Of a stretch of DNA of 64,000 nucleotides, positions 2,483 to 64,000 are shown one piece after another. Source of the DNA: Perkinsus olseni (lineage: Eukaryota > Perkinsozoa > Perkinsida > Perkinsidae); NCBI GenBank assembly GCA_013115135.1, contig JABANP010000279.1, forward strand, positions 1 to 64,000. The letters are read 5' to 3'. A model generated the notes under the pieces. The model was not told where the DNA came from. It saw only the letters and a program-made list of their open reading frames with translations, and ran no database searches. The number at the start of each line of letters is the position of its first letter. The first letter of the stretch is position 1. The translations under genes were made by a program, and so were the position numbers.

Positions 2483-3641
2483 ATGGTCCATCGGGCGAAT
2501 CAACTCAGCGATGGTCCGCGACTGGGAAAGTTTCTCGCTTATCTCGTATTAGCATACCCAGTTGCCCATCACTGCATGCCTGGCGTGAAGACTGATGCAA
2601 TACCGCCTAGCAAGCGGAAGACAGTCGCCGTGATCGGTGGCTCATTCGATCCACCAACATTGGCTCATCTCATGGTGGCGTCGCAAGTAAGTGTTGCCCT
2701 CTGTGGGAGGTACATACGCAGTGGACAGTGTCCTTGTCTGCGAAGCGACCTTTAGATCTGGATGAGAACTGCCGCGCATGCCGCTACGGTTGTTGGTTCT
2801 CATCCACTTCCAACGGCCATTGAGTGCCTCTGTCGTCGGCTGTATCGTCCATATGCCCATCAGGTTGTACAGCTGGGTTGTGCTGATGAGGCGTGGATGG
2901 TTCCCTGCGGCAACAGACCCGACAAGGACACCCAGGTCGATGCGGCGACCCGGCTGCGCATGACCCAGGCCGCCATAGAGGCGGTGATACCCGAGGAATT
3001 CCCGGTAAAGTGCTGCGACATCGAGGTGCGTGTAGCGGAGTACATCGATGAGCATTCATCATTCACCTTGCTAGGTGGCCAATGGGTCCTTCATTCCCAC
3101 GGTTTTTCTGATGCGCCGCCTGCGGGAGGGCCATCCGGATATTGCTTTCCGTTTTGTCATCGGCACCGATCTGCCGCCGACATTACCCGACTGGGACCAT
3201 GGCGATGAGCTAATAGCAGAGAATGAATTCATAGTGCTCCCGAGGTGCGCGGGGCCCGTCAGCGAACGGCTCGCTTGATGTTTTACTCAGGCCTGACTCA
3301 AAGCCAGAGTCTGAATGGCCGAAGGGATTGAAGTACGTAAGGGTCACCGATCGGGTTACTGTTGATCGACCCCTCCTCACCACGGACATCAGCAGTACAG
3401 CAGCGCGGAATAGGCTGCGAGAGCTTGGCTGGCTCGGGGCCGCGTCCATCGTACCCTAAACAGGTAAGGGGTGCGTAGTAAACATCCATCTCCCCGGGGC
3501 CCTGGAGGATGGCTTCGCGGGTCCTTCGGAGCTCCTGGTCCTCGCGCTGGGGCGATCGACAAATGCTAGGGTTCTCAGGTGCTGCAGATTATCCGTGACG
3601 AAGGGTTATATGGAGTCGACAGCTTCACTTCATCCCGATGA
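2483..3641 (+). CDS. Nicotinamide/nicotinate mononucleotide adenylyltransferase (NMNAT/NadD family)
   Basis: Joins ATP to NMN or NaMN in NAD synthesis. Exons: 2483-2686, 2864-3025, 3075-3244, 3291-3463, 3579-3641. Motifs come in family order: GGSFDPPTLAH (the GxFxPxHxxH nucleotide site), WMVPCGNRPDK, FVIGTD, and ISSTAARNRL (the ISSTxxR motif). The frame breaks once, at CCC(3454-3456)-TAA. If one base after CCC is skipped, the reading becomes SIVPKQ, meets a good donor (cag|gtaagg) and continues in exon 5 as VLQIIRDEGLYG, which matches the family's closing VP..V..YI....LY spacing with no gap. Without the skip the protein ends before that helix. The ATG at 2483 is the first in frame; a later Met at 2578 is also possible and would remove a non-conserved leader. 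The call is firm; the 3' end depends on how the shift is read. Confidence 0.82.
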
Positions 3642-4510
3642 TCTATGATAATGCAGAAGAGTACTCCACTGGCGTTTCGGCAGTTTCTTCTCCAATTCGA
3701 TCCGTATGTGTCGAGCTACTCAATTGCTGGGCGTGGCGACAGGAGGGGGTCTTCGGTTCCAATGACGTGGGAAACATTCGTGGTGGCCCATTGCGGGCCC
3801 AGTAGTGCGAGCATTGTTAGCCGCTTGAGGATCTTCAGCCCCGTTGGAAGGATTGATGCCGATCGTTGACTGCCCTCCAGCAGTGTCGATTTCGAAAGAG
3901 GACACTCACTGTGATGGGTGAGGAGGACTGGCGTAAGGATGCATGATCATGAAATAGTCGCTAGAAATTTGTTGCGCGCTGAGGGGGGCGCACTTCCGGA
4001 TAGGAGTATTTGGAATCACGCGTGGATTTCACGCCGTGAACTCCACGTTCGCGCAGACGAAGCGTGTTCATCAGTATACTTGTAAACTAAAAGCGAAACC
4101 TTGAGCCCTGATTAGTGAAAGGAAAAATCGAAAAGCAATGGTTGCTACAAATTTGGTACGGAGCCTACAGTATTGCGGTACCTCGCTACCACGATCGATA
4201 ATCGGCCCCTGCTGAATTGTGAGCGGTAAGCTGACTAGTCTCACGGCAATCGCGTAGAAGCTATCGAATGGGGTAGGCCCGGAGGACCACCCACTTTGGT
4301 GTCGAGAAATCTTTCATCTCGCAGGGTTTGTCGAGCCCTTCGGCCGCAACTTTTCCGTCCGATATCGGATTCCTCATTCATCTTCACCCTCTCTGGTCGC
4401 CTCTGTCTAGTCGAAGCTTGTCCTACTACTCCGGTCGCCACCTGCTTGTCTGCCTTCCCCATCGTGGCCCGGTATACCATTTCTACCATTCAGTGCGCAG
4501 TACAGTATCG
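3642..4510. other. Intergenic, no gene recognised
   Basis: Open frames here are short and show no family motif. A 74-codon frame at 3645-3869 has neither a recognisable domain nor convincing splice partners. The 3' part may contain the promoter of the DNA polymerase gene that follows. Confidence 0.35.
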
Positions 4511-7500
4511 ATGAGTCAGCAGACGGGACGCATCCCTGATGAGAGGGCGGGCAATTCACTGATTGAGCAACTACAGGAACTGGCCAGAGGTTGCCGGTGC
4601 TGCCGAGATACCCGTAAAGTGCGACCTTCAGTCACGACTGGAGTACCGAGTCAATTTCCTGGCGCTAGCCAGTGGCACAAAACAGGCTGGCAAGGCCTTG
4701 CGACGCAGGTGGGAGTCCTGCCAAGAGGGTTCCCAACCGATATCGAGAGGTTGGTTAGAGTTATCCATCTCAGGGTCACTTTGCCAAGTTTTCCACCGCC
4801 GTCGGGGATGCCCAGCCGGCCAAAGACAATTCTCTCCTGGTTCAGGTGAGCCTGCAAGACCCCCGTTTAATCACGACGTTGTTGATCTCCGTTAGGGGGT
4901 GCAGCCAGCTGAGAATGCAGCCTCGGTGGAGACGAGGGAAGATACCTCAGCAGTAGAGAAAAATGGTCGTGGTGCCGCTGTTGGCAAGCAACCGAGAGTC
5001 CATAAGCGTCAGAATGTACGTAGCCGCCCCGCCCTTCGGTCGATACCTCTTCGGTCTAGTGTCCACGCATTGCGTGTGATGCTGTTCCTCAGACTGGCCC
5101 GCTGCCGCTGCCTCCTACACTCTCAGCTCTGAGGGAGCTATTGGCGCCGACGGCAGCAGTGTGGATCGATATGGAGAACGAACCAATGATCGCAGAGCTT
5201 TTGGCGACCATCAATGGCAGTGCCGATAGCCTGATATCCTTGGGAGTCTTCAACAGCGACAACACGACCAACTTCCGCATACCCAGGCATGCGGAGCTCC
5301 AGAGGTGACGGCGTATCCTGGTACACTTTGTCTCAATGCTGCCCAGCCATGTATGATACGACAGTTGAATGTGCATTCCGGTTACCGAAACTCTGGCGTG
5401 CGGTTGATGACGGCTTTGCCGGTTTTGTCACCGTTCAAGTCCTTTCGCTGCTGCCCTAACCGATCCTCAGGCTAATCATGGCCTAGCCACTACCCTGCCT
5501 CGAGTCTCGTATGCTCTCTAGCTCTTGTCATACTCGGAAGGCGCGAGCGAATCATTCATCCTCAGGTACGCCATTTCGGCTGCATTTGAGGACCGTTTCC
5601 CGAAGCCCTTGGCTTTCGCCATACTCCATCAACGCGGGGTTCTCGAAGTGCAGGAAAGGCAGGTAGTATCACCGTGGCTTGCATTCGGGTCTGCTCTTGG
5701 TGCCAGTCCCCGCAGCTCGGGAGGCTATGGATTGCACTTGTCGTTATCTCAGGTTTATGTGCTCCCCTATTGTGAGCGAACCATGGATTTTTTAGCGGAC
5801 ATTTTGTCGTGCCGTCGGTGCGATGTACAGACGCCGGCCTTCGTATTCAACATCCAAGAAACTCTGAGATACTTTGCGATTGACCGGTGAGCTGCGAAGA
5901 GCTAGCTGCTCTCAGCATCGCCTTCGAGCCCATCTCAGGCCGAGTGAAATGCTCTATGCCGACGTGGGTGACCTGGCGATCCTGGCGTGGGTGCTCGACT
6001 CTGCTGCTGGTAGCGCTTGCTACGATATTGACCACCTCAAGACGGTCTATGGAGAGGACAGCGCCAACAAGCGAGCAGGAGAGCCGGCCACTCTGCAGGA
6101 GTGAGGGCATGCCCCCTTGGGCTGGGCTACCCGTCTCGAGTCAGGTCCCACCCCTGGAGAATGCTGGTCGACCATGACTTGCCTGAGTCTAGCGACCTCA
6201 TAACGGTGCTGTCCGGCAAGGTAGGCTCAAGCCCGAGGATTGGCTTCTCTCATGCTGAGCCATACTCTCCTTTACGGCTGTTGTGCATCAGGTGAACGCA
6301 CAAGACCAAACGGAAGTCGCGTTACAACAGGAGCTGCCAGTGGCTCCGAGTGTTGACTCTGATGTCGGTCACCGGAGCGCCATTCGACCACTCGGTCATG
6401 CAACAGTGGCGTTCTGACCTCGAAGGTAGCGGCGCTTCATTCGAATTTGCCGCACTTTCGCTGTACACTTCAAATGCGGATTTTCTCGGCCGCAACGGGA
6501 GATGTCATCCCTCAATGTCAGTGACTATGGCGAAGCTCGAGCGGGAGGCCCAAGCCTTGGTGAAGAAGGAGATCTTGATGACATCACCGGCACAGGTCCG
6601 TCGTGTTTCGATGTGTTTCCTCACTATGAGCCACCATTTCAATATAGTAGTTAGTCCGTCAGGTAGCGGCCCTCCTGTACGACGACCTCGGCCTACAGCC
6701 CCCAGCTGGTCGCAGGAGCCGCAGTACCGGGGATGAGGTAGATATCAGCATCTTGGGCTTCCGAGGAGTTACTTCCAACAGGTGTTGAGCATGATGGTCG
6801 ACCAGCATCCGGTCGTGTCGATCATACGCAAGCATAGACAAGTGGCGAAGCTCATCACGACTTACGTGGACACCATCAGGTCTCTACCCGAAAGCGCTCC
6901 CAGGCCTGGTCTGCTGGAGTACTTCCAACCGCGGAGCGGAGTGGCGGCAGGTTGCAACTTTTTGGGCAAGAACCGTCTGTACACTGTGTGGAACCAGACT
7001 ATGACGGTGACTGGCCGCCTGTCGAGTAGCAATCCCAACCTGCAGAACATCCCCCGGTCGCACGAGCTCGAGGACCTCGGCGTCATCAGCTTACGGAAGG
7101 CCTTCATTTCGCCCATCCTCGACTCCCACTGTCTGCTCAGCGTCGACTATCGCCAAGTGGAAATACGGGTCCTAGCTCACTTTGTGGGCAGGGGAGCGTT
7201 ACGGGAGAGTTTCGCCGTCGACGGTGCGGACATCTACACCAATATGGCGGCCATGATACTACGGAAACCGGCTGAAGAAGTTACGAAGCCCGAGAGAAAC
7301 AAGGCGAAAGTCTGCTGTCTAGCTCTGGTCTATGGCTCTGGTATCCATCTACTGGCCAGGCAGATGGGGGTCACCACCACCGTGGCCCAGGGTTTCAAGC
7401 GACAGTTCAGCTATGCCTTTCCCGAGTTGGAAAGGTGGATGTTCAAGGTTTGGAGAGACGCGAACAAAGACGGCTACGTTGAGACCATCTGCAAGCGCCG

Positions 7501-7870: not shown

Positions 7871-8097
7871 TTCGTTACATTACTCAATACCATTACCTAC
7901 TCTGCACGATGTTTTAAGCTATAAAGAATGCTTTCAAAAGGCGGAGCGTTGCGTTGGGATGTAGTTTTGGAGAGAACCCGGTCGCGCCTGCTCGTCGATC
8001 GACAGCAAGCCCGAACACTAAGCATCTTGGGTGGCCCCTCCGAGCAGCTCTGAGTAGCGCCTTCCTGTAGTTGAACGCGTATGCGCGTAAGTCTACT

Positions 8098-9497: not shown

Positions 9498-9639
9498 ACA
9501 GAAGAGAGAATGTTGCGTTATCGAGTTGAGGAGCATTCCTTGGTGGTCTCCGTTGTCTCTGCGGCGGATGTGACGCAATGCATTGGGGTACGGTTTGGTC
9601 ATCAGTGGCAATCTGAGTGACACTTTTTAAATCGTGAAG

Positions 9640-13222: not shown

Positions 13223-14945
13223 TCAGTCCATCGTCTTGCTGCCACACAAATTCCCGAGGAATGATCGGCTCTTCTTCGCTGGTTTCTTGGCGGTACTGGA
13301 GGAACCGACTGCCTCGTTATTCCTCTTTTCGGCCACCCTGAAAGACGAATAGCGATTCAAGATCTCGGCGAAAGAACCTCCAAAGACTTACTGCTTGTCC
13401 TCCGCAGGCTTGGTTTCGACCACAATCTTCTCCGGTATCTTTTCAACGGGAGCTTCTTGAGTCTTCTCGACCCCGGGAGTTTCGGGAGCAGAGCTGGCCG
13501 GAACTTGCTCGTTCGCGGTAGGAGCCGTCGCCTCAGGAGCGGCTTCGACGGGCTCAGCCTTCGCCTTGGAAGAATCGTTCGCTGCTGTTGACGATGACGG
13601 GAGCTTCTCTGGCGAGACGGCCTTCTCCTCCACTTCTCGAGACTTTTCGGGCTCCGTCGATCGAACGTCCTCACGAACCTCGGGTTGGACGTCGGCACTG
13701 TCAACAGGCTCGTCCCCACGAGAAGTGAATTGGCTGACAAGAAGAGCAATTATAGGACGAAATCAAAAGACAAGCAAAATCGCGCTTTCAACGTCTCAAC
13801 TCACCCGATGTTCTCTTCCCTGTCGCACACCTCAACACCTCCCAAGAACAGTCCGAGAACGGAACCCTGTGATTCTTGAGACTCAGCTTCGGCCTTGGGC
13901 GCGGACTTCTGAGGCGAAGGCTCCCTTCTAGTTGGAGACTCCTGCTTCTTCGCCTTCCGGCTGCCGGTCCCACGGTTCATAGGATGGCCCATGATATGTC
14001 CGAAGTAGTCGACATCATCATCACCGTCATAGGACGCTTCGGGCTCAGAAGCCTCCCTGGTAGGCTCAACCTCAGCACGAGAATTCTCCTCAGGCACTCT
14101 CTCGCCGGACTGCTCAATCGCTGCGGCTGGAGGCTTCTCAGAGGCCTTTAGCACAGTATCGGACTCGCCCTTGGTCGCTTCACCAAAGTCTCTGCTCTTC
14201 TCGTCGACCTCATTAGTCTTCTCGACAACCTCATTAGCCTTCTCATCAACATCATCAGCCTTCTCATCAACATCATCAGCCTTCTCATCAACATCATCGG
14301 CCTTCTCATCAACATCATCGGCCTTCTCATCAACATCACCAGCCTTCTCGTCAACGTCTCGATCAACAGTGCCAAGCTCCTTGGTTTCACCTTCACATGG
14401 GTCTTCCTCCTCGTCATCTTCTTCGTCAGCACTCAACGGGTGACCAAACAAATGTCCAAAATAGTCAGGTTGAGGCTCTCGAGGGCCCTTAGGGGTGCGG
14501 GGCTTCGACACTTTCTTCTCAGTATCTTCTTCCTTCTTAGGAGATTCATCTGTTGCCCTGTCACAACAAACATGATATAACCAAGCTCGATCTCACATTA
14601 AGATCTGCACCAGGCTAATACTTACTCATCTTTCTCGGGCTCGAGCCCTTCCGCTACGAGGAAAGTCTTGCTCGGGTAGAGGCAGTTCTGGACAAAATTT
14701 TCGGTGAAGTCAGGTGGAGCGATGCTATCCGCAGAAGGGAGAGGCGGGGCGATGGGCACCGACTGCCATAAAGCCTATAAACAGAAAGACAGATGCGTTC
14801 ATACGAGTCAGCCACAGCAAATGAAACAACTCACCATAGGAGCCTCGCCGTACTGCGCCATCGGGCTCAACGTATTAGCTTCATTGTAAGACTCAGCTTG
14901 CTGATCAATGTTAATCTCCTTAGGAACTTCAACACTGGTGGCCAT
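13223..14945 (-). CDS. Acidic DYFGH-motif protein, paralogue 1 (unrecognised family)
   Basis: Five exons on the minus strand: 14835-14945, 14626-14774, 13805-14557, 13392-13733, 13223-13337, all in phase. I do not recognise the family. The protein starts MATSVEVPKEI, has a conserved 50-residue head (WQSVPIAPPLPS, NCLYPSKTFLV), then a long Glu/Asp/Lys-rich region with two copies of a DYFGH-[LI]-[FM]-GHP motif: PDYFGHLFGHP and VDYFGHIMGHPMN. Next comes SVLGLFLGGVEVCDREENIG, a Glu/Pro/Ala-rich exon and the end KKPAKKSRSFLGNLCGSKTMD. Between the two motifs lies a 7-residue tandem repeat (DDVDEKA). There is no signal peptide or membrane helix, so a soluble or membrane-attached scaffold is likely. 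Two more copies follow in tandem upstream. The His pairs in the motif could bind metal, but that is a guess. Confidence 0.85.
14236..14360 (-). repeat. 21-bp tandem repeat inside the first acidic paralogue
   Basis: Five almost identical 21-bp units (agccttctcatcaacatcatc on the plus strand; positions 14236-14340) and a diverged sixth (14341-14360) lie end to end. On the coding strand each is seven codons, DDVDEKA, so length changes keep the frame. The other two paralogues lack this array, so it arose after duplication. Confidence 0.9.
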
Positions 14946-15678
14946 TACGCAGAAGCTTACCAAGGATCAAAGCTGAATGAACAGGAGATAGCGGACACCC
15001 GGAAGATGAGACGACTCCCTAGCGCATCTCGCTTCGCCAACACAGGACGCAGCGAGGACGATATGAAACGGTCACACAGGCAGGGGCGCACAAGTTTTGC
15101 GTCCGAAGGACAGAGTTAAGATAGTGAGCTAAAATCAGCAGTGCAGCTCAGAGCTCATTAGGCATGATAGAATGTGAATGGGCGTCTAGGCAGGAATACG
15201 GAGGTTCACAGGAATGATGATATCTAGTGGGATGCAAACCACAAACGAGAACTTGCAAGTGATAAACTACAGTCGAAGCCGCAAATCCTCAAGGGCGATA
15301 AATCTCACTCACAGACAACGTCACTAGTTCAAAGACCAGAAGAGCGAACGGGAACCGCCAACCGTAAATCCCCCTCGAACCCGAAAACTTCGCTAATTGA
15401 CCAACTCAGTTCCAACGAGTTGACTAACGACCTCCTCACAGCAGCCAGTATACTCATACAATCAGTAGCGGATCAAACAAAATCAGTGATAAAAATGATA
15501 GTTGATGTTCAATGACATATCTGATTCCAGAAAGAACCATCATAGGATGTCCATCACATAGCAATGGCTCCTGCAGTGTACTAGCGTCGACATTAATTTA
15601 GTGTACTGTACACATAATGACATGCATAACGTGGAGGTACTGAGATCACGGTCTCTGTACGTTCAAGTCTCCGATACT
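14946..15678. other. Intergenic between acidic paralogues 1 and 2
   Basis: Holds the upstream region of paralogue 1 and the 3' flank of paralogue 2. No conserved coding segment is seen. Short frames at 14793-15119 and 15601-15930 overlap exons in the wrong sense or show no family similarity. Confidence 0.45.
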
Positions 15679-17172
15679 CTAATCTTGGTTCCGGCTCCCG
15701 CACAGTCCAGCGAAGAAGGACTTCTTTCTCGTCGTACTTCTAGCAGAGCTTGTCTCGACGGGCTGCTCAGCCTTGCCGGACCTACGAGCGGAAAGAGAAT
15801 AACGCACACCGGAGTATCCGAAGCTCGCGCCCAGGATCACAGGACTCACTTTTTAGCTTCTACGCTCACACTACGGGCTTGCACGACCTCGGGGTCTCGA
15901 GACGGCTGCGGCGCGACAGCAGGAGCTTGACTCTCCTGCTTCGCCGGCATAGCAACTTCCGGTGGAGATGGCTTCGAGCTCTCTTCGACGACTCGATGAT
16001 GCACTGCGTCGCGGGGAAGTTCAATCTTGGGTGCATCGACGACCTCAGGCGTCTCCTCTACGGCCTCAACTTCTGGCACGGTAGCTTCCTCGGTCTTGGC
16101 GACTGGGGCAGTCTCGTCCACGTCCTTCGCACCACCGCCAGCATCAGCAGATTCCTCTCCGGGTCGAACAGTGAATTGTCTGAAGGAGGATACACAATCC
16201 ATCAAGAAGGTAACAAATCATATCCCGCTTACCCGATGTTCTCCTCTCGGTCGCAGACTTCAACGCCTCCCAAGAACAAGCCCAAAACGGATCCCTGAGT
16301 CTCTTGTGAATCGGTCTCTTCAATCTTGGGGGCTTCTTTCTCTTTGGGAGTTTTGATCTTGCGCTGGCTGTTACTATGATTCATAGGATGTCCCATTATG
16401 TGCCCGAAGTAGTCGACATCGTCATCCTCGGTTGACTCCTCAGAGATCTCATGCTCCTTGTCCGACTCGGAAGGAACCGGCTTGCTCTCAGGGCGCACGT
16501 CCACAACCTCGTGTTCAACTTCGGGTGTTCCCACATGCTCAGGAGCTGCGGGAGATTCAGGAGCTTCCACCACCACGTCTTCCTGGATTGGCTCCTCAGG
16601 GGCATCAGCGACGGGATCCTCCACGTCGTTCTGCTCAGCTTCGTCCCGACACTTTGAAGTCGAATCCTCTTCTAAGTCCTCGTCATCGTCCGCAGAGATA
16701 GGATGCCCCAATAAGTGACCGAAGTAGTCCGGTTGCGGCTCACGAGGAAGTCTTGGAGTTCGTACCTTAGTCTCAACAACCCTGAGGCAGGCAAGAAATA
16801 GGACCCAATTCGAGAAATTGGCAGCGAAACTTACTCATCTCGCTCCTCAGACTCCTCTTTCTCCTCGTGCTCAGCAAAGCCCTCGGATACGAGGAAGCTC
16901 TGGCTGGGATAAAGGCACTTGTGTACAAAAGCTTGCTGGAAATCCATAGAGGCAATATCTCTTGCGGAAGGTAACGGAGGAGCAATAGGGACGGACTGCC
17001 ACATGGCCTGAGAGAGGAACAGCTGCACCACAAAGATTCGAAGTAATGAAACAAAGAGACCTACCACTGGAGCTTCGCCATACTGGGGCATGGGACTCAT
17101 GCCATAAGCACCATCGTAGGGCTCAGCATGCTGCTCGTAGACTTGCTCTGTAGCTTGGACATTAGCTGCCAT
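15679..17172 (-). CDS. Acidic DYFGH-motif protein, paralogue 2 (unrecognised family)
   Basis: Same exon plan as paralogue 1. It starts MAANVQATEQVYEQ (ATG complement at 17170-17172) and shares the head AMWQSVPIAPPLPSA and KCLYPSQSFLV. The motifs PDYFGHLLGHPIS and VDYFGHIMGHPMN frame a Glu/Pro-rich spacer, and SVLGLFLGGVEVCDREENIG is identical to paralogue 1. A further acidic exon follows (about 15846-16187). The last exon ends TTRKKSFFAGLCGSRNQD with its stop at 15679-15681. The conserved blocks carry few changes while the acidic spacers share almost no sequence, so selection seems to act on the two motifs, the EVCDREENI block and the C-terminus. Function unknown; no enzyme motif is visible. 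Confidence 0.82.
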
Positions 17173-17643
17173 CATGCGGGAGTATCTCAGAAGCTGAGAA
17201 AAACAGAGTAAAAACAAGCGAACCGGCAAGTACACAAGCGAGATCCATCCAAGTAGTGGATTGACAAACAAAGAGGCAAGACCATTGATGAAGCTACCCT
17301 TATGGGTTTCACTGGCAATGTCGTACCCAGCAATGTTAATAAGACATGAGATACGATAAAGCGGTGATGATAGATGCCGGATTCCAACAGGAGGGTCCCT
17401 CCGTATGATAGACAGGAGCTTGTACAAGCACTGAGTTACAACTCCTTGGGCGCCGTAACAGCCAGAGCAAGCTCACCACAAACCCTTCTGAACATCTAAT
17501 TAGAACAAATAATGTACTGTGAGTCATGTTACCATGCAACCACCAAGATCACAGTCTCGATAGATAGAAAAGTCCGATCGGACAAAGTGAAGCTGATCAG
17601 TCAACCCATCCGCAGAAGCAGTCGAGAAAGGTCATCTTCACGC
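17173..17643. other. Intergenic between acidic paralogues 2 and 3
   Basis: Upstream region of paralogue 2 and 3' flank of paralogue 3. No supported coding segment; the minus-strand frames here only continue upstream from exon 1 of paralogue 2. Confidence 0.4.
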
Positions 17644-20162: not shown

Positions 20163-22630
20163 ATGGCGAAGTTCAGAAACTACAAGACGAAGGCGAAGAA
20201 CCCCTTGGGGAAGAAGAGGAAGCGGAAGCTGGACGCGGAAGATGTGATGGAGAAGAAACAGAAAAAGCTGGACAAGAAGGCGAAGCAGGAGGCTAAGGGT
20301 AGAAGGGAAGGCGGCTGTCATGCGGGCGTTTGTGGACTGCAGTCAGCGGGCTGTTCATCGTCCATTCCGATGCCGCGTAGTTAATGTTGCGTCAAAGAAC
20401 AAATTTCTTCTGTAATTAAACAGTAGATGCGTGACCCTAACTCAGAATTACTCTTAGTCCTGAAGAGGCGTGTCGGACGTTGAATTACAGCGACAACGGC
20501 TTGCGTTCTCACCGGGCGTGTGTTATGTTACCGAAGGACCTTCACTTAGGTGCCTTGAGGAGCGCGAGGATGGAGGCTGCCGCTGCTGCTGAGGCTGCGT
20601 CCAGGGCAACTCATGCGGCTGTGCGGGAAGCTCTGACGGGCAAGGCTGAGGGGCCGAGCGAGGACATCGGCGATTTCGACAAGCTACTTATGTCATTGGG
20701 AGTGGACGCTGATAGGCTTTCGAGTGACGAGGAAGAGTCCGTGGTGGGTGAAGGAGAGGAGAGCCCGGCAGAAGCGGCTGAGCTGGAAGGCGCCGTTGAA
20801 CTCGACGATAGCGAGGAGCTCCCTGAGGACCTTCCCGATGAAGCGGAAGCGGAGGCGGAGGAGGATGGCGATGCACCTGACGAGACGATTGTGGTATCGG
20901 AGGAGCAAGAGGACGGTGCTGGTAGCGAAGCTGGTAGTGACGACGAGGAAGAGGAGAGCGCCGAAACTGTGGGTTACTCTTCGTACAACCTGCAGGAAAT
21001 CCCCCAGCTGGGAGCGCACAACGATGTCACTGCCGAGGTGACGGACCAGCTGGATCGGTGCAAGGTTCATGGTACTCATCGGACGGTGGAGCTGTTGGAG
21101 AAAAACGAGGGCTTCGTCGACCTCCTGCCGAAGATACAGCGGTCCTTCGAGGAGAATGGGTGCAGCAATGAGGCTTTGAGCGGGAAGGGCCGTGCATTGG
21201 CGTCCGCCCTGTCTACCTATAGCGACGTCGTCTATGGTGGCATGGACTTTGAGGCGCAGAGGGAGACTCGGCAGGTGGCCATGTCTCATGTCATGGCACA
21301 TGTAGTGAGGGCCAGGAACACTGTGTGGAAGAACAACGAGAAGCTGCGGAAGCACGCCTTGCTCGGGGAGAAGACGGAGGAGTTCGACTCGGATCCGTAC
21401 CGAGATCAGGGATTCTCCCGGCCTCGAGTGTTGATCCTCTGCCCCTTCCGTAACGTGGCTCGGGAGTATGTGCAGTGGCTGCTCAAGTTGGCTCCCTAAC
21501 AACCAACAGACGATGAACAAGAAGCGCTTCGATGACCAGTTCGGCACGGACGAGTTTTCCAGCAAGAATGAGGCGACCGACTGGCGGAGACGGTATCTTT
21601 CCGGAGGACGACTTCGCCGATGACGACTTCCGGGTGGGCATCCAGGTGGGCAGGAGGATGGTCCGCCTGTACGCCCCCTTCAGCGCCTCGGACATCATCA
21701 TAGCCTCCCCTCTAGGGCTCCGACTCATCACTGGTGCCGAAGGGGATGCCAAGCGTGAGTTTGACTTCCTCTCTTCAATCGAGATGGTCCTTCTTGACCG
21801 GGCCGATGTGCTCAGTATGCAGAACTGGGACCATGTGCTCGAGATTCTCAAAGTCACCAACGTCCAACCCTCGACCCTTCCCGAGGGCGCCGATATTTCC
21901 CGGCTTCGGCCTTGGATAGCCGACGGGCTCGCCAGGAGGTTCCGACAGACGGTAGTGTTGACCGATACCTACAACCCCCTCATGGACTCGGTGATACATG
22001 ACACGTGGGAAGAGGGCAAAGAAGGCAACTGGCGAGGGATGGATCCGCATGCTGCCCTCTACCAAGCTCGGCACGGTCGCCAAGTGCTCGGTGAATCTCG
22101 GCATAGCGAAGCAGCTGTTCATGCATGTTGCTGTCGATGACCCCTCAGAGGCCTCGGATAAGTACCTCAAGTTCTTCGAGGAGCGATACTGGAAGGACAT
22201 CGGCGCCGGCCTCGGCCGTCTGGCGATTTGCGTGAGCTCCTACTTCGAGTATCTTAGGTTGCGCGCGTTCCTCAAGAAAAATGACGCCTCCTTCGTGGCG
22301 ATTGATGAGTATTCTTCTAACAAGTCCATGGGTCGAGCTCGGCAGTTCTTCTTGACTCAGCAGAAGAAGGTCATCCTCATGACGGAGCGTTTGTTGTGGT
22401 ATAGGAAGCTCCGAATCAAGGGCATTCAACACTACCTCTTCTACGGTGTGCCAGAGCGACCGGAGATCTACGAAGATCTCCTCCGGGACGTCAGAGTGCC
22501 GAGCCAGTGCTACTCCACCTGCCTCTATAGCAGCTGCGATGGCTATGCTCTGGAGAGGCTTGTGGGCAGGAGAAAGGCTGCCGAAGCTGCTCACGGCGCC
22601 CCCTGGGAAGGTATCTGCATTCTCGTAAAC
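20163..22630 (+). CDS. UTP25: UTP25 (DIEXF) U3 small nucleolar RNA-associated protein
   Basis: Nucleolar component of the small-subunit processome needed for 18S rRNA maturation; a DEAD-helicase-like fold without working helicase motifs. The first exon (20163-20298) is a Lys-rich nucleolar tail, MAKFRNYKTKAKNPLGKKRKRK. A 251-nt intron follows (20299-20549). The main exon carries an acidic stretch, then VLILCPFRNVARE, NKKRFDDQFGTDE, VRLYAPFSASDIIIASPLGLR, FDFLSSIEMVLLDRADVLSMQNW, and late GRARQFFLTQQKKVILMTER and GIQHYLFYGVPE, all in family order. The family alignment needs three +1 frame changes with no intron: after CCC 21494-21496 (followed by TAA), near TTT 21555-21557, and within about 22021-22060. 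Everything else is conserved, so it is either translated by shifting or carries insertion errors. The 3' end is uncertain because a possible last intron abuts the next gene. Confidence 0.85.
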
Positions 22631-27671: not shown

Positions 27672-27839
27672 CTGCACTCTGGTAGTACAACCCTCGGTAG
27701 GTTAGATAGGTATTTCGTTCGAGCAGGACCTGGTTAGAACCATGGAAGCGGACGATTACGATAGCTTCCCATTTGGGAATCGTTAAGGAGAGATGCTTTA
27801 TCAACGTAGAGGATATTGAGGTGAGGTCAACGATGTGTT

Positions 27840-28584: not shown

Positions 28585-29710
28585 ATGAGCAATCGTCGTG
28601 GCTCCCCCGTGTACGTCAACGGCGATTTAGCGGGCTTCTTGAATGCCTTGGCAGACTATGAGGCCAGCATGCGGCCGATCCGCCTCGCGGCTCTCACGGG
28701 ACGGTTGCCAGCGCCTGACACTGTGAGCTACGCTCCACCACCCGACCCAGCGCAGCCGTTCGAACAAGAACTCCCTCCCGGTGCGTCGCATCATTCTTGG
28801 CTGGCGAGGGAGTGATCCTCATTGTTGTCTTTTCTTCTTCCAGATCCTCATGTCGTCGAGCTACCCCCTGCGACCTCTAATGGCTGCTGTACAGACGCCT
28901 GTGGTGTGCCGACCGAGAAACGGCGACGCACAATGTACGACACTAACTATTTTAAGGGAGAAGCAAGAGTCGCCAGAAGATGGATGGAGAGACATGGAGG
29001 AAGGGGATGGCCCGAGCCACAGGGAGCAAGAAGAGGAACTTTAGATTCAGACTGGGAGTGGTGCGAGCCCTCCGGTCACCAGGCGGGCAGCCTATCGCCG
29101 TAACCGCAAGCGGAATGAAGTCGACCGAAGGTGTCCCGTCAGGGGCTGCCACGCGGTGGTTGATCCGTCGGAGCTTGATAGTCACATACTAGCTCAGCAT
29201 CAGGGTAGTAGCCATGCGGCTGAGATCCGACGGAGATTTGAGGATGAGAGGGCCTTTCCGGGAGAGGGAGGAAAATCCCGCAGGGGAGCGTCCGAAGATT
29301 GCTGGGGTCAGGTGCCCGACACCGCTGGTTGGGCTCTTGTTGGCCAAAGGGACGACATCATCGGTACCGGCCAACTACCGTCCTCACCCAGAAATCGGTC
29401 GAGCGCTGGCGGAAGGCGAGTTCCAGCAGCATCCTCGTGAAGGGTGGACTCTGGCTCGGATCTGCGCGAGTCTGATATACAGCTGCCGTATCGAGCGTAT
29501 AGGGAAGATGAGGGAGAGGTGCCTTGAGGAGCTCCTCAGCCGGACGTCTATCAACCCATTATGGAGAAGCTGCCTAGAGCTTATAGGAACGGCGACTTAG
29601 AGCCGATATGGGAGGCGATGTGTGAAGCATACAGGCGACGGACACTGCCGATGGACGAGAGGGCTACTGTACTACTGCTGTGGCGGTACTCGAGGGAGTT
29701 GCCTCAGTGA
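28585..29710 (+). CDS. C2H2 zinc-finger family protein, copy 3 (several frame changes, perhaps decaying)
   Basis: Starts MSNRRGSPVYVNGDLAG. A 63-nt intron (28781-28843) joins LPP to DPHVVELPPATSN in phase. The rest matches copy 2 closely (SDWEW, CPVRGCH, SHILAQH, CPTPLVGLLLAKG, GWTLARICASLIYSC, RATVLLLWRYSRELPQ) but needs three frame changes: +1 near CCC 29068-29070, +1 at TTT 29255-29257 (ERAF then REREENP, gapless against copy 2), and +2 or -1 near 29545-29550 where two bases are extra relative to copy 2. Amino-acid changes between copies are mostly conservative, arguing against a long-dead pseudogene, but three breaks in one gene fit recent decay as well as any shift mechanism. Confidence 0.5.
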
Positions 29711-30183
29711 TGAAGTAGTGGTCCTCGAGGCTCTGGTTGCCCTGCTCAAGAGCTTATTTTCTTTTCCTACGTACTCACTAGGGTAGCTCGTTAGCTACGC
29801 TTGTCAAGGGGGACCGCATGATCTCAGAAACGCTGCTGCCGGCTGAGGTAATAGTCAACAGCTTCGTCGTTTTTCTGGGGCACTTGCTGATCTCCTGTCA
29901 ATGCATTGGCCGTTCGGTGTCGTATGGCGTCCTGCTGTTTTCCTCCTAGGTTCGGTACCAGTATGAGTTGCTTTTGATTCCCTGGCTTGTGCGTTCACAG
30001 TTGTATGAAGCTTCGTTATTTGTGTTTCGTGAAGCTCCTTTGTTGTGCTTGCCGTATCGGTAGGATTGGTCCTCTCGCAGCTTTCCTACCTAGCAAGGCG
30101 TCACCGCTGTCGGCTCCATGGGGTGGAGGGTTAGTTCGATCGTCTCGTAATTCGTCCAGCGTCGTCAGATTATCGTTTTTCTG
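29711..30183. other. Intergenic, no gene recognised
   Basis: Upstream flank of the 5-oxoprolinase gene. Short T-rich frames (for example 29987-30184) show no family similarity. Confidence 0.4.
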
Positions 30184-33100
30184 ATGACTTCCGGCGACGC
30201 CGAGAAGTTCCGCTTTGCCATCGACCGCGGCGGAACCTTTACGGACGTTTATGCCGAGGTGCCTGATGGCCACGGCGGCCATCAGAGGATAGTCCGCAAG
30301 CTGCTCTCCGAGGATCCGGACAATTACTCGTAATAATGGGGCCTTATTTGCGCCGTTTACGGGATTCCGAGAATGTCGCCATAGAAAATAGAGCCAGAGG
30401 ATATACAGGCTTTTTCACGGTTTCCGTACCGGTAGCCTTGTTGTGGCGAATCTAGGGTCGCTTTGTCGCCTACCGGAATGTAGCGACTGAATCGACTACG
30501 GTTACTCTCAGGGACGCCCCTAGGGAAGGTATTCGTCGAATTCTGCAGGAATTCACTGCTGAGCCTCACCCGCCGGAAAAGCCAGTCGACTGCTCTAAGA
30601 TCGAGTCCATTCGTATGGGTACCACCGTGGCTACCAACGCCTTGCTGGAGCGGAAGGGCACTCCTTGCGCCCTGCTGGTCACGGAGGGCTTCGCTGATCT
30701 GCTGGAGATTGGCAATCAGACGCGCCCGGCCATCTTTGATGTCAAAATACGCCGGCCGGACACGCTCTACACGAAAGTGGTTGAAGTGCCTGAACGTGTG
30801 ATCTTGGCTCGAGAGACCGACTACCTTCCCGGACAAGTCCATCAAAGGGAGAACGGGGGAGGAAGTCAGAGTCGAGCGACCGTTAGATAAGACCACGCTG
30901 AAGGCCAGGCTACAGCAGCTCCTCGACGAGGGTATCAGCAGCGTTGCCATCCTCCTCATGCACAGCTACATCTATGGAGACCACGAGAAGGAGGTCGCGG
31001 ATCTCTGCCGGTCGATGGGGTTCGCTCACGTGTCGGCCTCGAGTGAAGTGCTGGCGATGGCTAAGGCTGTAGCGAGGGGGCACACAGTGGTGGCCGATGC
31101 CTACCTGACTCCGACTATAAGGACGTACTTGAAGAACTTCTGTGACGGTTTCGACCGAGCATTGACTGAGACTGACAATACGAGGCTGTTGTTCATGCAG
31201 TCCGATGGAGGCTTGGCACGAATGCAGGACTTTACTGGTCACAAGGCGATACTGTCCGGCCCGGCCGGCGGGGTTGTGGGCTTCGCCAAAACGACGGCCC
31301 GCGCTCTTGGCAGCGACGTAGCGGTGGTGGGCTTCGACATGGGCGGCACCTCCACTGACGTCAGTCGTTATGACCCTAGGGTGGGGTTCGAGCACATCTA
31401 TGAGACGGTCACTGCTGGCGTTACTGTACAGGCTCCTCAGCTGGACATCACTACGGTGGCAGCCGGTGGCGGTAGTCTCTTGACCTATGAGCACGGTCTG
31501 CTGTGTGTTGGCCCGGAGTCGGCAGGGGCGCATCCTGGCCCGGTGTGTTACCGGAAGAAGGGTGGGAAGTTGGCCGTGACGGACGCTAACTTGGTTTTGG
31601 GAAGGCTCTTGCCGAGTCATTTTCCTCGTATTTTTGGAGAGACCCAGGATCAACCTCTGGATACTGAGGCCTCGCGCAGAGCCTTGCGGAAGCTGTCCGT
31701 GGAGATGGGCCTCGGTGATGATATCGATGCTTGCGCTGCGGGATTTATTCAGAGTTGCCAACGAGGCTATGTGCAGGCCCATCCGTAACATGACTCAGAT
31801 GAGAGGCTATGATGTCCGGACGCACGTCCTGGCGTGCTTCGGTGGCGCCGGAGGTCAGCACGCCTGTGCGATGGCACGGGCTCTCGGTATCGACACAGTC
31901 TTCGTCCACCGCTTCTCGGGAGTCCTCTCGGCCTTTGGTCTGGCCCTCGCGGATGAGGTTGTTGATAAGCAAGTTCCGGCGGCTCAGGAATGGCAGCTGG
32001 AGGGTCCCTGGATGGACACCTTAGGGGAGCTGGAGAAGGAGGCGATCAGCGCATTGGAGAGGGCTGGCCATCACGGCAACATCCACACTAAGTACTTCTT
32101 AAATATGCGCTACTCGGGCACCGATACGAGCATCATGACCGCTGTTGAGGACAGCGACAACGGCGACTACCAAAAGGCCTTTGAACGGGCTTACAGAAGG
32201 GAATACGGCTTCCTTATGACTGGCAGGGAGCTGCTCATTGACGACATCAGAGTGAGGGCCAGAGCTGTGAAGGAGGACGGCTTCGAGTTCACCCGCCCAC
32301 CGCCCACGGAGGAGTACGAGGCAGAGCATGACGAGCTGGCGAGCGTTTACTTCGAGGGTGTCGGTCGAGTAGAGAAAACCCCGGTGTTCTTGGAGGCCAA
32401 TCTGAAGCCGGGGGCAGTGGTGAGGGGTCCGGCCATAATAGTCCAGAGTACTGGTACCATCGTAGTGGAACCAGATTGCACGGCCAAGGTTAATGGCGAT
32501 GGCGACTACGTTATTGATGTCAAGCAACTGGGCGGCGGTGATGAGGTGATGGACCTTGAAGTGGCCGACCCTATACAGCTGTCAATATTCAGTCACAAGT
32601 TCATGAGCATAGCTGAGCAAATGGGCCGCTGTTTGCAGCGGACGGCAACCAGTGTTAACGTTAAGGACCGCCTGGACTTCTCCTGCGCTGTCTTTGGCCC
32701 GGATGGTGGTCTGATCGCTAACGCTCCTCACATACCGGTCCACTTGGGTGCCATGCAAGAGGCTGTGAAGATCCAGCTGAGCTTATGGGAAGGCAAGCTC
32801 AAGCATGGGGACGTGCTGGTGTCGAATCATCCGCAGTTGGCGGGAGGCTCGCACTTGCCGGACATAACGGTCATGACGCCTGTTTTTGAAGGGGGCAAAG
32901 TGGCCTTCGTGGTGGCCTCAAGAGGGCATCATGCGGACGTGGGTGGAATTGAACCCGGGAGCATGCCGCCCAACTCCACCTGCTTAGCAGAGGAGGGCTG
33001 CGCTATCGTCACGCACAAGCTGGTCAGTGCCGACCAAGGCTTCGACGAGGCTGGGATCACTGAGCTCCTCACTACGGCGGGGACGAGGAATCTGGAGGAC

Positions 33101-35781: not shown

Positions 35782-37112
35782 ATGGGAAATCATACGTCTA
35801 CATCGGCGGACTCGCCCGCTATTGCTACATCGAGTGACGCCGCCACGACTGGCCGAACCAGCCGCGCCCTACCGGAAGCGGATATGAACAGCCTCCATGC
35901 TTTCTTCAAGGCAGCTGCAGCGGACGGTCGTGTTACACTGGAGTCCCTCAGCGATCATCTCTCGGTTGCCTACAAGCCCTTCGCGCCAGCGTTATTCGAG
36001 TTCATATCTGGCGGTGGTGTCAAGTCGGCCAAGGTTGATAAGATGGTCGAGAGCTCAGCGGAGCTCCTGGCCAACCGGGCCGACTGGGCCTCCCTCATTC
36101 AGGCGTTCGGGACACCTCATGCCGTCCTGCAGTTCGTGGTTGCGTCTATCGATCCGAGCCGAGCCGCCCCGAGATATCAAGATTGCTGAGAGCTCCGAAG
36201 TTTACGACTTCCAGACTATGATGCCTGGCATAGGCCCGGTGTTCAACGAGTCGCTAAGATGTGCGCTTTGCATGGACAGCGATGGTCAGACGGCCGACTC
36301 GACCTCGAGTGCGCCCAAGTTCGTGAAGGAGTACCATGTACTCTTGCTAAGGACCATATACCCGGACCTGATGCCGTCGCTGAGTACGCTTTACTGGAGT
36401 TCAGCACACGGCCGTTCGCTGCAGCGGCTGATGAGCAATTCAGGCCTTTACCCCGGGCCCTACTGTCCTCGTTATTAAAGACACCAAGGGCCGTGTGTGG
36501 GGTGCAGCTACAGGCAGTGCTCTGGATTGGTCCAAGGATACCATCGTCCCTGACGCCAGCGCGAAGGGTGGGTATGATCTTTTCAACAAGATCGCCGTCA
36601 CGACCACGCTGTATCAGCTGGAGCCGGAGATCCGCGTCATCCGAGGCCGCACGCGCTCGAGCGCCGACAACTATGTGTATCTGAATGCCAAGAACAAGCT
36701 GAGGGCGAAGGGCCTCGGCTTTGGTGGCAGAAGTGGCGGAGAAGGCGACTGCCGTGTGTGGATCAACGAGGACCTTACTAAGGCTAGTGTGATGGACTAT
36801 GATGCTACTTATGATGCGGGACAGATCCTGAGTGCTGTTGATGACGATGATGACGACGACAGTATGAGGGAGTCGGATATCAGTGACATCGCAGTGCTCG
36901 GTGGTGGCGGTGCTGCTGCGCTGAGGATGCGTGATGAGCAGCTGGAGAGGGACAGGCAGGCGAAGGAGGACTCGAGGAAGGTGGATCTGAAGAGGTTCAT
37001 GAAGGTGTCCGAGTTCGACAAGGAACAGCTGCTTTCCAAGACCTTCGGTGCTACTGCCAATGCTCGGGATGCTATCCGGGAGCAACGTGGCGAGAAGGAC
37101 AACGGTCAGTAG
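35782..37112 (+). CDS. TLDc-domain protein with probable N-myristoylation
   Basis: Starts MGNHTSTSADS, where Gly2 followed by Asn and Ser at position 6 is a typical myristoylation start, as in MEAK7/TLDC1-type proteins. A helical region (residues about 30-125) precedes the TLDc domain: LYWSSAHGRSLQRLMS, PGPTVLVIKDTKGRVWGAA, SADNYVYLNAKNKLRAKGLGFGG. The C-terminus has a run of Asp and a charged helix ending GEKDNGQ. TLDc proteins act in oxidation resistance and V-ATPase/TOR signalling at membranes (family knowledge). The frame moves +1 twice without introns: at GCC-GCC-CCG (36163-36171), and at CCC-GGG-CCC (36452-36460), where the conserved GPT-VLVIKD context fixes the place to a few bases. 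Confidence 0.82.
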
Positions 37113-37342: not shown

Positions 37343-40342
37343 ATGAGCCTTCTTTTCAACACGTCTTTGCCTAGGCGGCCACGTACGTATGGCAAGCAGC
37401 ATGTGGCGGTGCCAAAGTTCCCTCCCAAGGCACACTCGACCCCCTGCTGAGCCTGGCTGGACCCCGGAGTTGCCGAAGCAAGGCCCCGATGGAGCCATGC
37501 GGGTCGTCTTCGGCCGCAGCTATGGTCTTGTGTTCCCTCCGACGGACTGGCGACCCGATTCGAAGCAAGCGCAGGTTCCTGACTGGGAGCTTGAGAAGGA
37601 CGTTGTCTATGGCTACAACGGCGAGGTTCGGGGCTCCCTGAGAATCATCGATGATGGCCGTGTTGCGATGTACCCTCTAGGGTCGATGGTGGTCATGCAC
37701 ACGCTGGAAGATTCTTCCCAGCGGTACTTCGAAGGTCACTCGGCCGACGTCCTCTGCCTGGACTACTCTGAGGAGACTGGGTTGGCTGCCAGCGGCCAGC
37801 AGGACCCCAAGGGCATCGAGGGTCCCTTCGTCTGTCTATGGCGCCCAGATACCCCGACCGAGACAGTCGCTCAGTTGCACTACCATCAAAGGAGCGTCAG
37901 TGCGGTGGCGTTCGTCCATGGTGGTAGCATGCTGGTCAGTATTGGTACTGACGACGCTAACATGGTGGCCGTATGGACCCGTCTGCCGCATCGCCCGCCC
38001 GGCCGTGGGAGCGACGGTCTGCCATTGAAACCGCCGAGAATAACCACACCCGTCTTCACGATGAGCAGTGGTCGCAGTCCAACCTTCTCTCTGACCGCCT
38101 CTAGAGGCTCGGCCCTCCTGTCGGTAGGCGAGGGACACTACAAGTTCTGGAAAGTTGATCGGCAGACTGGCGAGCTGGCATGCAAGCGAGGCACCTTTGG
38201 CCAGTCACCACCGAGTAAACAACCCCAGTGTGCCGGCTTTTCCGGAGACATGTCGTTTCTTGTGTGGCTGCAACGGGTACCTCTATCTCCTGCAGAACGG
38301 CGTGGCGACCCAAGCGGTGTCCCTAGGCCCTCACAAAGTGGGTTGTGCCGCCGGTCTGCCCGATGGCACGATTTTGGCGGCAACACACGGTGGCGAGATT
38401 GCGCTGATAGGCGGTGGTCCTAGCGGGAGGTTGAAGACGATGTGGCAGCATAGCATCAAGGACCTCGCTGGAACGGGCCGGGCTGGAGACGTCAAGCGGC
38501 TCATGGGAGTTGGCAGTAGGAGGCTTCGTCTTTTTGTGCGCTGCTCATCCACGGTTTAGATTCCACTGGCGGCGCTAGATTTAATAGCATAGCGGTCTGT
38601 CCCGGGAGAAGGGTCACGGCCCTGCTCGGCACTGCTGGTCATAGCCTGCTCCATTTCGACGTCGCAGGGAGGGCGATCATTGCAGTTGTGCAGGTAGGCT
38701 GTAGCTGACCACGCGATGGGCGTCTATTGTGCGCTCAGGTGGCACATGGTGGCGAGATGTGGGGACTGGCCCATCATCCAACCCACACGCTCTGTGCCGA
38801 CTGGGGGTACCGGTGGGGACGTTCGGTTCTGGAACACCTACGAGAGGAGGCCACTGGTCGGCAAGGTAAGCAGTCTTTTAGACCAAATACACAGACGTGA
38901 CCATATCGTGTGAATTTCTTTGAGCGGTTTGATGTTGATAGCAGAACTCTATGCGGTCTTTTCTTGACCTGGATCGTCCAGCTTCTTTTTTCCTCTTTGG
39001 TTTGTCCTCTTCCTCCCTTCGTATTTCGGCAGGTCATATCTTGCGCCGAGGCAGTGTACTCGCTGTCCTTCAACGCCCAAGGAGATCTCTTCGCCATCGG
39101 CCAGGGTGAAGGCCTCCTCACCGTCTTGCACTTTCCTAGCCTCTCACAGGTCGGTGCTGACTGAATCATTCTCATGCTACGCGATGCTGTAGGTATATTC
39201 CCGTCGACTGTCTGCGACTCGAGAGAGAATCTGTGATGTTCGTTTTTCGGACGATGGTGTCTGGCTAGCGGCCGCCTGTTGGGACCAGAAGGTCTATCTC
39301 CTACGCGTTCAATATGGGGCCACACTGAGGGTTGATGTCAACGACAGGGTAGTAGGGTTGTTCGGCCATCTTGCCTGACTCCGATTTTATCGCTCATCGT
39401 AGCGGTTCTCGTGTGTACCTTCTTCGACGATTTAACGTTGTTATTCTCTCAACGAAGGCGAACTGATACGATTCATGAGTTAAGATAAGATTCTTTTGCA
39501 TTAGTCATCGTTGTTTTAGGCGGTGAAAGGCATCACCGTTGCCCTGCACGCTATATTGAAAGGCAATTCGTCTTCGCCATTGAATGTGATGTTCACCAAG
39601 GATGGGTCGATAGTTATGAGTAACAGCAAGGACACCCAGATTCTCTTCTGGCGGACCAAGGATGGAGCTCGCATGACCTCCGCTAGCATGTAAGATTTCC
39701 TGACTGCGATCTTAGGTTGGTCCGTGGCTTTCTCGTGAGGCGGAAGTGAGAGGTTTTTTTGCAGGTTCCGAGATGCCAAATGGCAAGACAACTGGTCATG
39801 CGTGTTGGGATGGCCGGTGATTGGAGTCTGGGCCGACCCCGAGTACGACCAGACTGATGTCAACGCAGTCCACCAATCATCCGGCAATAATACCAGGCTG
39901 CTTGCTCTGGGAGATGACAATGGTAAAGTGAAGCTGTTGAGGTTCCCTTCGCCCTACTTGAACGCTAGAGGAGCTTCATACAGCGGTCATGCAAGCCACG
40001 TGACGAATGTGAGAGTTGCCATAATTCTCCCTAGCTCTGCACCGCAGTTTTCAGGTGCGCTTCAGTCCGATCAACACACTCGTGTCCATCGGCGGCGGCG
40101 ACCACTGTGTCATCCAGTGGAAGCTGGTCCCAAGGGCCCGAAGTGGTGGCCGGCATGCTGGAGCTGCCAAGTGCGCCTGGCTCGAGGTCGACGCAGAAGC
40201 GGACTTGGAGGACCCGTTGGGCATCGGAAAGGTCGAGAGAGCGCGGTCACCAGAGGTCACTTCCGGTCGGGCTTATAATGAGGCTATGAGGCAGCATAGG
40301 AATAATTCATCATCTATCAGGAACATGTTGTCTTGGGACTAG
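37343..40342 (+). CDS. EMAP/EML-like microtubule-associated WD40 protein
   Basis: Opens with a HELP-type region (VVYGYNGEVRGSLRIIDDGRVAMY) and two beta-propellers of WD repeats: FEGHSADVLCLDYSEETGLAASGQ, then THGGEI, AHGGEMWGLAHHP, and at the end GWPVIGVWADPEYDQTDVNAV, LGDDNGKVKLLRFPSPY, SGHASHVTNVRFSP and SIGGGDHCVIQWKL. These are EMAP signatures; the protein should bind tubulin, often in cilia or spindle. Introns are 44-85 nt. The ATG at 37343 gives MSLLFNTSLPRRP and joins the rest by a +1 change at CCC 37442-37444; an ATG at 37389 avoids this but gives an unrelated leader. Two further +1 changes occur near 38256 (FSGDMSFL then CGCNGYLYLL) and within 38796-38809 (then GGTGGDVRFWN). The last exons read through cleanly to the stop. 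Confidence 0.85.
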
Positions 40343-54386: not shown

Positions 54387-57787
<3,401 letters not shown>

Positions 57788-61968: not shown

Positions 61969-63592
61969 CTAATGCGTACACACTCCCCCCACGTAGTTTT
62001 GCAGAGTGTGACTTCGGATCCTGTGAAGATTGCTTCCAACTACGCGGATGTAGGAGGATACCACTTTTCCAGCTGATCCCCGAGTGAGGGAACCTGAGAA
62101 ATGAGGGAATGTCGCCGTTGCATCGGCTTTCAGCTCCATTCAAGAGGCAGGTGATCAGCAATGCTTGGTAGACCAAATGGTGAAACCCGACTCACGGTGC
62201 ATGTTCGCTACTGCCCCTGGTGACCCGATAGCCTGAGAAAGCGAAGGCTGATCACGATAGGAAAGTGAACAGTCATAAAACACTGAAGATTGGGTTGAGC
62301 AGTCGGTGTGGTCCTCTGAGGGAGTGACAACGACCGCAATGGGCTGAAGGGTAGATCTGAACGATTACCTCAGTAGACCTTCGCAAAACACTGGGCGAAG
62401 CTCCGAACCCTGAATATAAGAAAGGGCGATGTGCAAGTGACGGTCTAGAAACTACGAGTCCTTCCAGACTTAGGGGAGAGTTGGTCATCAACACCATCGA
62501 TTATCTGATGCGACAAGCAACATGAGCGAAACGTGAGCCGAGTTAGCCTACGATGTCCACCGCGTGCTGGGATGCGGGAAAGAGTTCACTGTTGTTTTCG
62601 GCAGACGGGCCAGAAGCTCCCCTCTGGGGACTTATATTTGGTGTTAGTTTCTGGAGAGGGAACCTCGCCGGAGCAGCTGCCTGCATCTTACGCTCCCCAG
62701 CCTTGGCGGCTCACTCGAAATATCATCGAACTCGATGTCCTCCATCACTAAGCGACCTCTGGGACGCCGTTGAGAGAATTTTGTGAACTGATCAGAAGTT
62801 CTGATTCAGAACGACTTAAGCACTCCAGCAGGGCATAAAGTGCATAAATTCCGCAGAGCTCGTAACTTTACTATCAGCTTTCTATAATCTATCTCTGAGA
62901 TGGGTGGCCCCTAGCATAGTTATTTACAGAGGGATCCTACGTCACCCACCCCGAGTGACATCGAAGATTTGTTGGTGAAGTCGCTCAGGGCCAAAGTGCG
63001 CCTCAATGTCTCTCCCTGAGAGGAACCGTTTCTGTGGCCTCTCTAACAGCGGCTAGGAGCTCACCGCGTGCGATACTTTAACGCTGGCCTGATTCGCCCA
63101 CTCGACACCTTCGAATTCAACCTGACCGCCGGCATCATTAGCCAACTCAATGTGGCACTGGCATACGTTGATGACTTGAACCTCGGATATGAAATCATCG
63201 AGCCTGTGGTGTTTGAGCCATTCCTGAATCGTCAAGCTCACTGCACCCAGGTCTGCCTCGGCCTCCTGCTTGGTGAGGCTATCGACTATGTGGAAGACCC
63301 TACACAAGGGCAGTGATGGGCTGTCATTTAGCCTCCCCTCACCGTATTCTGCAGTCGCGCCATACCGGATGTTTCCGAAAGAGGTAGGCGAGCATGATAC
63401 CCCAGCCGCCGTCGCCAATATTCCACCAGACGTCCTGTAGTCGTGTCCCTAGTGACACAACTAGTTGTCCCCCTAGCTTCGATGTATTCTGACGCTATTA
63501 TGATGATCTGTATGTATTCATAAGTTACTAGGCACTTAACGTCATAAGTCTCAATGCCAAGCAGCAGTGTTGAGAGTGAGTTAAAGGCTAAC
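61969..63592. other. No gene recognised; possible 5' exons
   Basis: May contain first exons of the minus-strand EF-hand gene (for example around 61922-62176), but none is convincing. A plus frame at 63068-63316 contains YVDD, and a minus frame of 121 codons covers the same bases; neither has family support. Confidence 0.35.
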
Positions 63593-64000
63593 ATGGTGGA
63601 GAACCCGTGTCTTCAGTCCTTGTGCAAGCATTTGGACCTCGATCAACCCTCAACTTCTGGTATATCTCAAGCAAGAAGAATTTGATGTTATTATCCAAAA
63701 AGCCATTACTGATAAGAAGGTATCTCTGGCTGAAGTACTGGGCTGGAGGGAAGCATATGAGAAGCTACTGGCGACGAAGAGTTCGCAGAAAACTGCAAGG
63801 GTTACTTCGGAAAGCTCCACGATAAGTTCGAAGTTGTCGCATAATGGGTCGACAGTGTCTACGGTACCAACGGAACTCCCTCTGGCTTATAAGTTTATGT
63901 CGGATATGTCTTCGGAAGAAGTGATATCAACAAGTGATATGGTAGAGCTTATAAGTGAAATCCCTCTGCCTGGTAAGAAGTGCTTTGAAGGACACCAAGA
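63593..64000 (+). CDS. Start of an unrecognised gene, cut by the window edge
   Basis: Starts MVENPCLQSLCKHLDLDQP at 63593 in an open frame; after CCC (63647-63649) the reading continues, by +1, as QLLVYLKQEEFDVIIQKAI and then a long open frame with SLAEVLGWREAYEKLL and a Ser/Thr-rich region to at least 63994. The +1 frame is plainly coding in character and closed in the other two frames. There may instead be a start inside the second frame. Function unknown; the 3' part is outside the window. Confidence 0.4.

What the first reader, a model, noticed from the sequence alone, without database searches (positions are those of the whole stretch)
3454..63650. About 20 frame changes, nearly all +1, in otherwise intact genes
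Family or paralogue alignment forces a jump to the +1 frame with no usable intron at: 3454 (NMNAT); 6346 (polymerase); 8951 (GT31-like); 21494, about 21555 and 22021-22060 (UTP25); 22890 (small basic protein); 26373, 29068 and 29255 (C2H2 copies); 30828 and 31744 (5-oxoprolinase); 36169 and 36452-36460 (TLDc); 37442, 38256 and 38796-38809 (EML); 41604 and 42561-42566 (KCC); 53018 and 53307 (EF-hand); 57637 (Sec23); 63647 (edge gene). Against these are only two -1/+2 cases (about 34070 and 29545). Genes such as the dehydrogenase, SLC35B, p32 and the orphan at 48.9 kb have none. Two explanations compete: genuine +1 ribosomal frameshifting, or insertion errors in a long-read assembly, which also favour extra bases in short homopolymers. 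The strong direction bias is what makes it worth testing.
Basis: partly seen in the sequence, partly recalled or inferred. Interest (0 to 1): 0.88.

Follow-up and report, generated by a model that had tools for sequence, protein, structure and literature searches.

The report
Assembly errors mimicking frameshifted parasite genes
The many one-letter frame jumps in these Perkinsus genes are most likely errors of one genome assembly, which seems to have written two versions of a variable letter side by side, so they are not evidence for unusual protein synthesis.

Summary
The window is contig C200 (68,493 bp) of a Perkinsus olseni assembly: gene model P0128 (FOZ60_006892), on a contig of that length, matches it in 414 of 414 residues. 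The frame changes are in the sequence: 11 were placed exactly in the window (8 of +1, 2 of +2, 1 of -1).

Programmed frameshifting is not supported. At 7 of 7 reader sites where a gene model from another P. olseni assembly could be compared, that model runs straight through; P. chesapeaki (2 sites) and P. marinus (1 site) do too. The same defect hits tubulin, HSP70 and HSP90 genes on other contigs, while sister copies are intact. CCC-T, a candidate shift word, is read normally elsewhere.

Best explanation: consensus error at heterozygous sites. Of 12 exact +1 events, 11 fit two synonymous alleles written side by side and 10 fit a transition; random insertion predicts 0.43 and 0.23. Two contigs of one locus differ in just this way. 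An indel artefact of merged haplotypes is in print (PMC5632298). No read data were available.

The parts
3451..3454 (+). +1 frame change, end of the NMNAT-like gene
   Evidence: model P0004 (FOZ63) runs through without a gap
6343..6346 (+). +1 frame change, family A polymerase gene
   Evidence: model P0004 runs through
   Evidence: model P0003 (FOZ62) runs through
   Evidence: model P0003 runs through; fits three letters at one fourfold-degenerate position
21494..21616 (+). net change from frame 2 to frame 1 in UTP25 (reader: two +1 steps at 21494 and 21555)
   Evidence: PF22916 positions 1-88 before, 130-257 after
22002..22109 (+). +1 frame change in UTP25
   Evidence: PF22916 before, PF06862 after, in the next frame; the own gene model P0128 crosses this stretch with a 60-base intron at 22091-22150
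29255..29255 (+). +1 frame change, second copy of the C2H2-like gene
   Evidence: one base longer than the paralogue here (A1)
29546..29547 (+). +2 frame change, second copy of the C2H2-like gene
   Evidence: two bases longer than the paralogue here (A1); fits three letters at one fourfold-degenerate position
30807..30841 (+). +1 frame change, 5-oxoprolinase
   Evidence: PF05378 28-123 in one frame, 117-175 in the next
31745..31752 (+). +1 frame change, 5-oxoprolinase
   Evidence: PF01968 1-219 in one frame, 217-287 in the next; PDB alignments
36157..36160 (+). +1 frame change, TLDc gene
   Evidence: P0126 (FOZ62) and P0127 (P. chesapeaki) run through
36449..36452 (+). +1 frame change, TLDc gene
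   Evidence: P0126, P0127 and P0129 (P. marinus) run through
37436..37439 (+). +1 frame change, EML gene
   Evidence: P0124 and P0125 (P. olseni, other contigs) run through
38253..38256 (+). +1 frame change, EML gene
   Evidence: P0124, P0125 and P0130 run through
38796..38799 (+). +1 frame change, EML gene
   Evidence: P0124 and P0125 run through

Best explanation
The frame changes are consensus errors of this one P. olseni assembly and are not features of the organism's genes. Where merged haplotypes differ at a letter, the consensus sometimes wrote both alleles one after the other, which adds one base; where three alleles differ, it adds two. Most coding differences between haplotypes are synonymous changes at third codon positions, so the extra letter sits there and the protein is otherwise intact; this also gives the +1 bias. 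Shown: models from other assemblies lack the shifts; unrelated housekeeping genes carry them; the letters fit doubled synonymous alleles; two contigs of one locus differ in just that way. Inferred: that each site is heterozygous in the sequenced isolate, that FOZ62/FOZ63 models come from other isolates (from their name prefixes), and which step of the assembly made the error.
For: (1) 7 of 7 comparable reader sites are continuous in other P. olseni models; P. chesapeaki at 2 sites, P. marinus at 1. (2) The UTP25 and EML regions occur once in G000, so the continuous EML models come from another assembly. (3) Elsewhere in G000, 2 of 9 HSP70-type genes examined, 2 of 6 tubulin genes examined and the HSP90 gene on C368 carry one +1 each; 6 of 6 other copies aligned to reference copies have none. 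(4) 11 of 12 exact +1 events fit two different synonymous letters side by side (random insertion 0.43, P = 7e-4; base duplication 0.44, P = 9e-4) and 10 of 12 a transition (0.23 and 0.27, P = 2e-5 and 7e-5). The five events outside the window, found after the idea was noted, fit both in 5 of 5. (5) Both +2 events tested fit three letters at a fourfold-degenerate position (null 0.17-0.18 each). (6) Contigs C9 and C186 carry the same locus with 39 coding differences in 1,968 bases: 38 third-position, 38 synonymous, 35 transitions; log-likelihood of the 12 events -14.9 under that spectrum, -21.5 under duplication, -21.9 under random insertion. (7) Indels at haplotype differences in a merged long-read assembly are described in PMC5632298 (passages).
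Against: 10 of 12 events also look like run extensions, more than plain doubling predicts (0.45, P = 0.008); doubling may need an allele equal to its neighbour, true of 29 of 39 haplotype differences, but that is a guess. One of 12 events (36157) does not fit synonymous doubling, and the -1 at 8318 is not explained by it. No second haplotype of the UTP25 or EML locus is in the assembly, so heterozygosity at these sites is not shown. The sequencing method of this assembly was not seen. The non-coding control (ribosomal RNA) did not complete. C9 and C186 could be a duplication instead of haplotypes.
Confidence: 0.8

Rival explanations
1. Ordinary insertion errors of long-read sequencing (lengthened short runs or random extra bases), unrelated to heterozygosity, left by incomplete polishing.
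For: 10 of 12 exact +1 events can be read as a run extension; PMC8081667 (passages) names short consensus indels causing frameshifts as the commonest error of unpolished long-read contigs.
Against: 2 of 12 cannot be run extensions; 10 of 12 transitions and 11 of 12 synonymous doublings are unlikely under duplication (P = 7e-5 and 9e-4) or random insertion (2e-5 and 7e-4).
Confidence: 0.15
2. Genuine +1 programmed ribosomal frameshifting in nuclear genes.
For: Strong +1 bias in otherwise intact genes; two sites (3454, 21494) have a proline codon directly before a stop codon; Perkinsus mitochondria shift at AGGY/TMGGY and CCCCT and are thought to import cytosolic tRNAs (PMC9550989, passages).
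Against: Shifts absent in models from other P. olseni assemblies, P. chesapeaki and P. marinus at the compared sites; present in one tubulin or HSP70 copy and absent in its sister; 13 of 107 in-frame CCC codons in intact stretches are followed by T with no shift.
Confidence: 0.02
3. Real insertions in the sequenced isolate (decaying genes).
For: Absence in other isolates would fit; a doubled or polyploid genome could tolerate loss.
Against: At least 11 exact events in one window, in genes otherwise intact, plus HSP90 and tubulins elsewhere; only the extra bases mark decay in the exactly aligned genes, where 429 of 440 and 553 of 564 residues are identical.
Confidence: 0.02
4. Overlooked small introns.
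For: Introns as short as 43 bases are found here, and the submitted UTP25 model uses a 60-base intron across a frame change.
Against: At the 7 compared sites the relative's protein continues with no residue missing and one base is extra, too little for an intron.
Confidence: 0.01

Closest known systems
Indels introduced when a long-read assembler merges heterozygous haplotypes (PMC5632298, early FALCON assembly of hummingbird; passages seen)
   Same: Indels at nucleotides that differ between haplotypes, in merged regions, spoiling gene models.
   Different: There the error was traced in a diploid bird and cured by phasing; here it is inferred from letters alone, in a protist reported as polyploid (title of Bogema et al. 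2021 seen in reference lists), and without reads.
Programmed frameshifting in Perkinsus mitochondrial genes (PMC9550989, passages seen)
   Same: Genus, +1 direction for many sites, proline codons among the candidate words.
   Different: Mitochondrial sites are conserved across four species and follow consensus words; here the compared sites are not conserved and no word holds.
Abundant +1 frameshifting in Euplotes nuclear genes (recalled, no call)
   Same: Many nuclear genes with +1 changes.
   Different: Recalled Euplotes sites shift at a lysine codon before a stop codon; in the printed contexts two sites have a stop codon directly after the candidate word, and both follow a proline codon.

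Membership tests
Programmed ribosomal frameshifting | Extra base conserved between isolates or related species | tested here: not met
   7 of 7 compared reader sites are continuous in other P. olseni models; 2 of 2 in P. chesapeaki, 1 of 1 in P. marinus
Programmed ribosomal frameshifting | A shift word that is avoided or rare where no shift occurs | tested here: not met
   CCC followed by T: 13 of 107 in-frame CCC codons in 18 intact stretches, 3 of 23 in window stretches; only this word was counted
Programmed ribosomal frameshifting | Extra base kept in RNA, peptides across the site | not testable with these tools
   no RNA or peptide data
Merged-haplotype consensus indel | Absent from other assemblies of the species | tested here: met
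   7 of 7 compared reader sites
Merged-haplotype consensus indel | Letters fit two alleles with the spectrum of haplotype differences | tested here: met
   11 of 12 synonymous doubling, 10 of 12 transition; haplotype spectrum 38 of 39 synonymous, 35 of 39 transitions; but run-like events exceed the prediction
Merged-haplotype consensus indel | Both letters present as alleles in reads | not testable with these tools
   no reads held
Merged-haplotype consensus indel | Same excess in non-coding DNA | not tested
   ribosomal RNA search did not complete
Homopolymer insertion error | Extra base always extends a run | tested here: not met
   10 of 12 can be so read, 2 of 12 cannot

The most novel reading that the evidence does not exclude
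At some of the 10 untested or undecided sites nuclear translation of Perkinsus shifts by +1, with cytosolic tRNAs shared with the frameshifting mitochondria.
Probability: 0.02. Interest if true: 0.85.

Novelty: not a real feature. Interest (0 to 1): 0.12.

Why it matters
It removes a false lead in a genus where real mitochondrial frameshifting makes a nuclear claim tempting. It shows that at least one public gene model from this assembly (P0128) crosses a frame change with an intron, so counts of genes, pseudogenes and introns drawn from it need care. The doubled-allele signature (synonymous, third position, transition) is a simple check for other heterozygous or polyploid protist assemblies.

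Tried and rejected
Slippage at a proline codon or CCC-T looked attractive by eye because many sites contain a proline codon. It was dropped when other assemblies lacked the shifts, when exact placement moved some sites, and when CCC-T proved to be read normally. Homopolymer lengthening alone was set aside on the synonymy and transition counts. A second copy of the UTP25 and EML loci was looked for in the assembly; the only match was the window itself. An Rfam scan of the window at gathering scores gave no match and ARAGORN no tRNA. The genome tRNA search was not followed up. Of the six genes in the query, relatives came back for UTP25, TLDc and EML only.

Rows left out of counts: the HSP70-like gene on C249 (about 30% identical to its reference, so its -1 and +1 are unreliable); an EF-G-like gene, L084, which looks frame-split but has no close reference; the tail of P0130, which does not match the gene; the runs on loci from the minus strand, which were read on the wrong strand and redone (the runs of L039 and L042 against L046 are valid and show no frame change). 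The site 29255 was not in the 12-event test. The local HSP90 reference residues used were recalled; that the gene is split rests on PF00183 positions 1-154 and 136-505 in two overlapping frames, and one search supports the downstream frame. The null models place insertions uniformly over intact coding stretches; classes that a model cannot produce were given a floor of 0.01, and the 78 doubled cases come from 39 differences in one gene.

Full report
What the window is. A polymerase fragment finds P. olseni gene models at 99% and 89% identity (P0003 and P0004). The window lies in G000:C200, in an assembly of 61,483,535 bases in 968 contigs; C200 is 68,493 bp long. The P. olseni model FOZ60_006892 (P0128) sits on a contig of 68,493 bp and matches the window in 414 of 414 aligned residues. 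The window is therefore almost certainly from the FOZ60 assembly. The prefixes FOZ62 and FOZ63 of other models point to other assemblies of the species; that they are other isolates is my inference.
Noticed in passing
   Followed up: yes
13388-18954, minus strand: Open frames at 13801-14592, 16229-16834 and 18325-18954 share a motif of the kind DYFGHLLGHPMN and a similar start region; they look like a small tandem family of unknown kind.
   Followed up: no
26960-27680 and 29000-29720: Two copies of a C2H2-like gene, 87% mean column identity, the second with frame changes against the first.
   Followed up: partly
L039/L040 and L071/L072 (G000 C9 and C186): The same two-gene locus on two contigs, about 3-4% different: separately assembled haplotypes or a recent duplication.
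   Followed up: partly
G000:C778:264811-265975 and 307743-310471: Tandem arrays of tRNA matches at spacings of about 166 and 181-183 bases.
   Followed up: no
L084 (G000:C290:92380-93300): An EF-G-like gene that also looks split between two frames; no close reference, so not counted.
   Followed up: no
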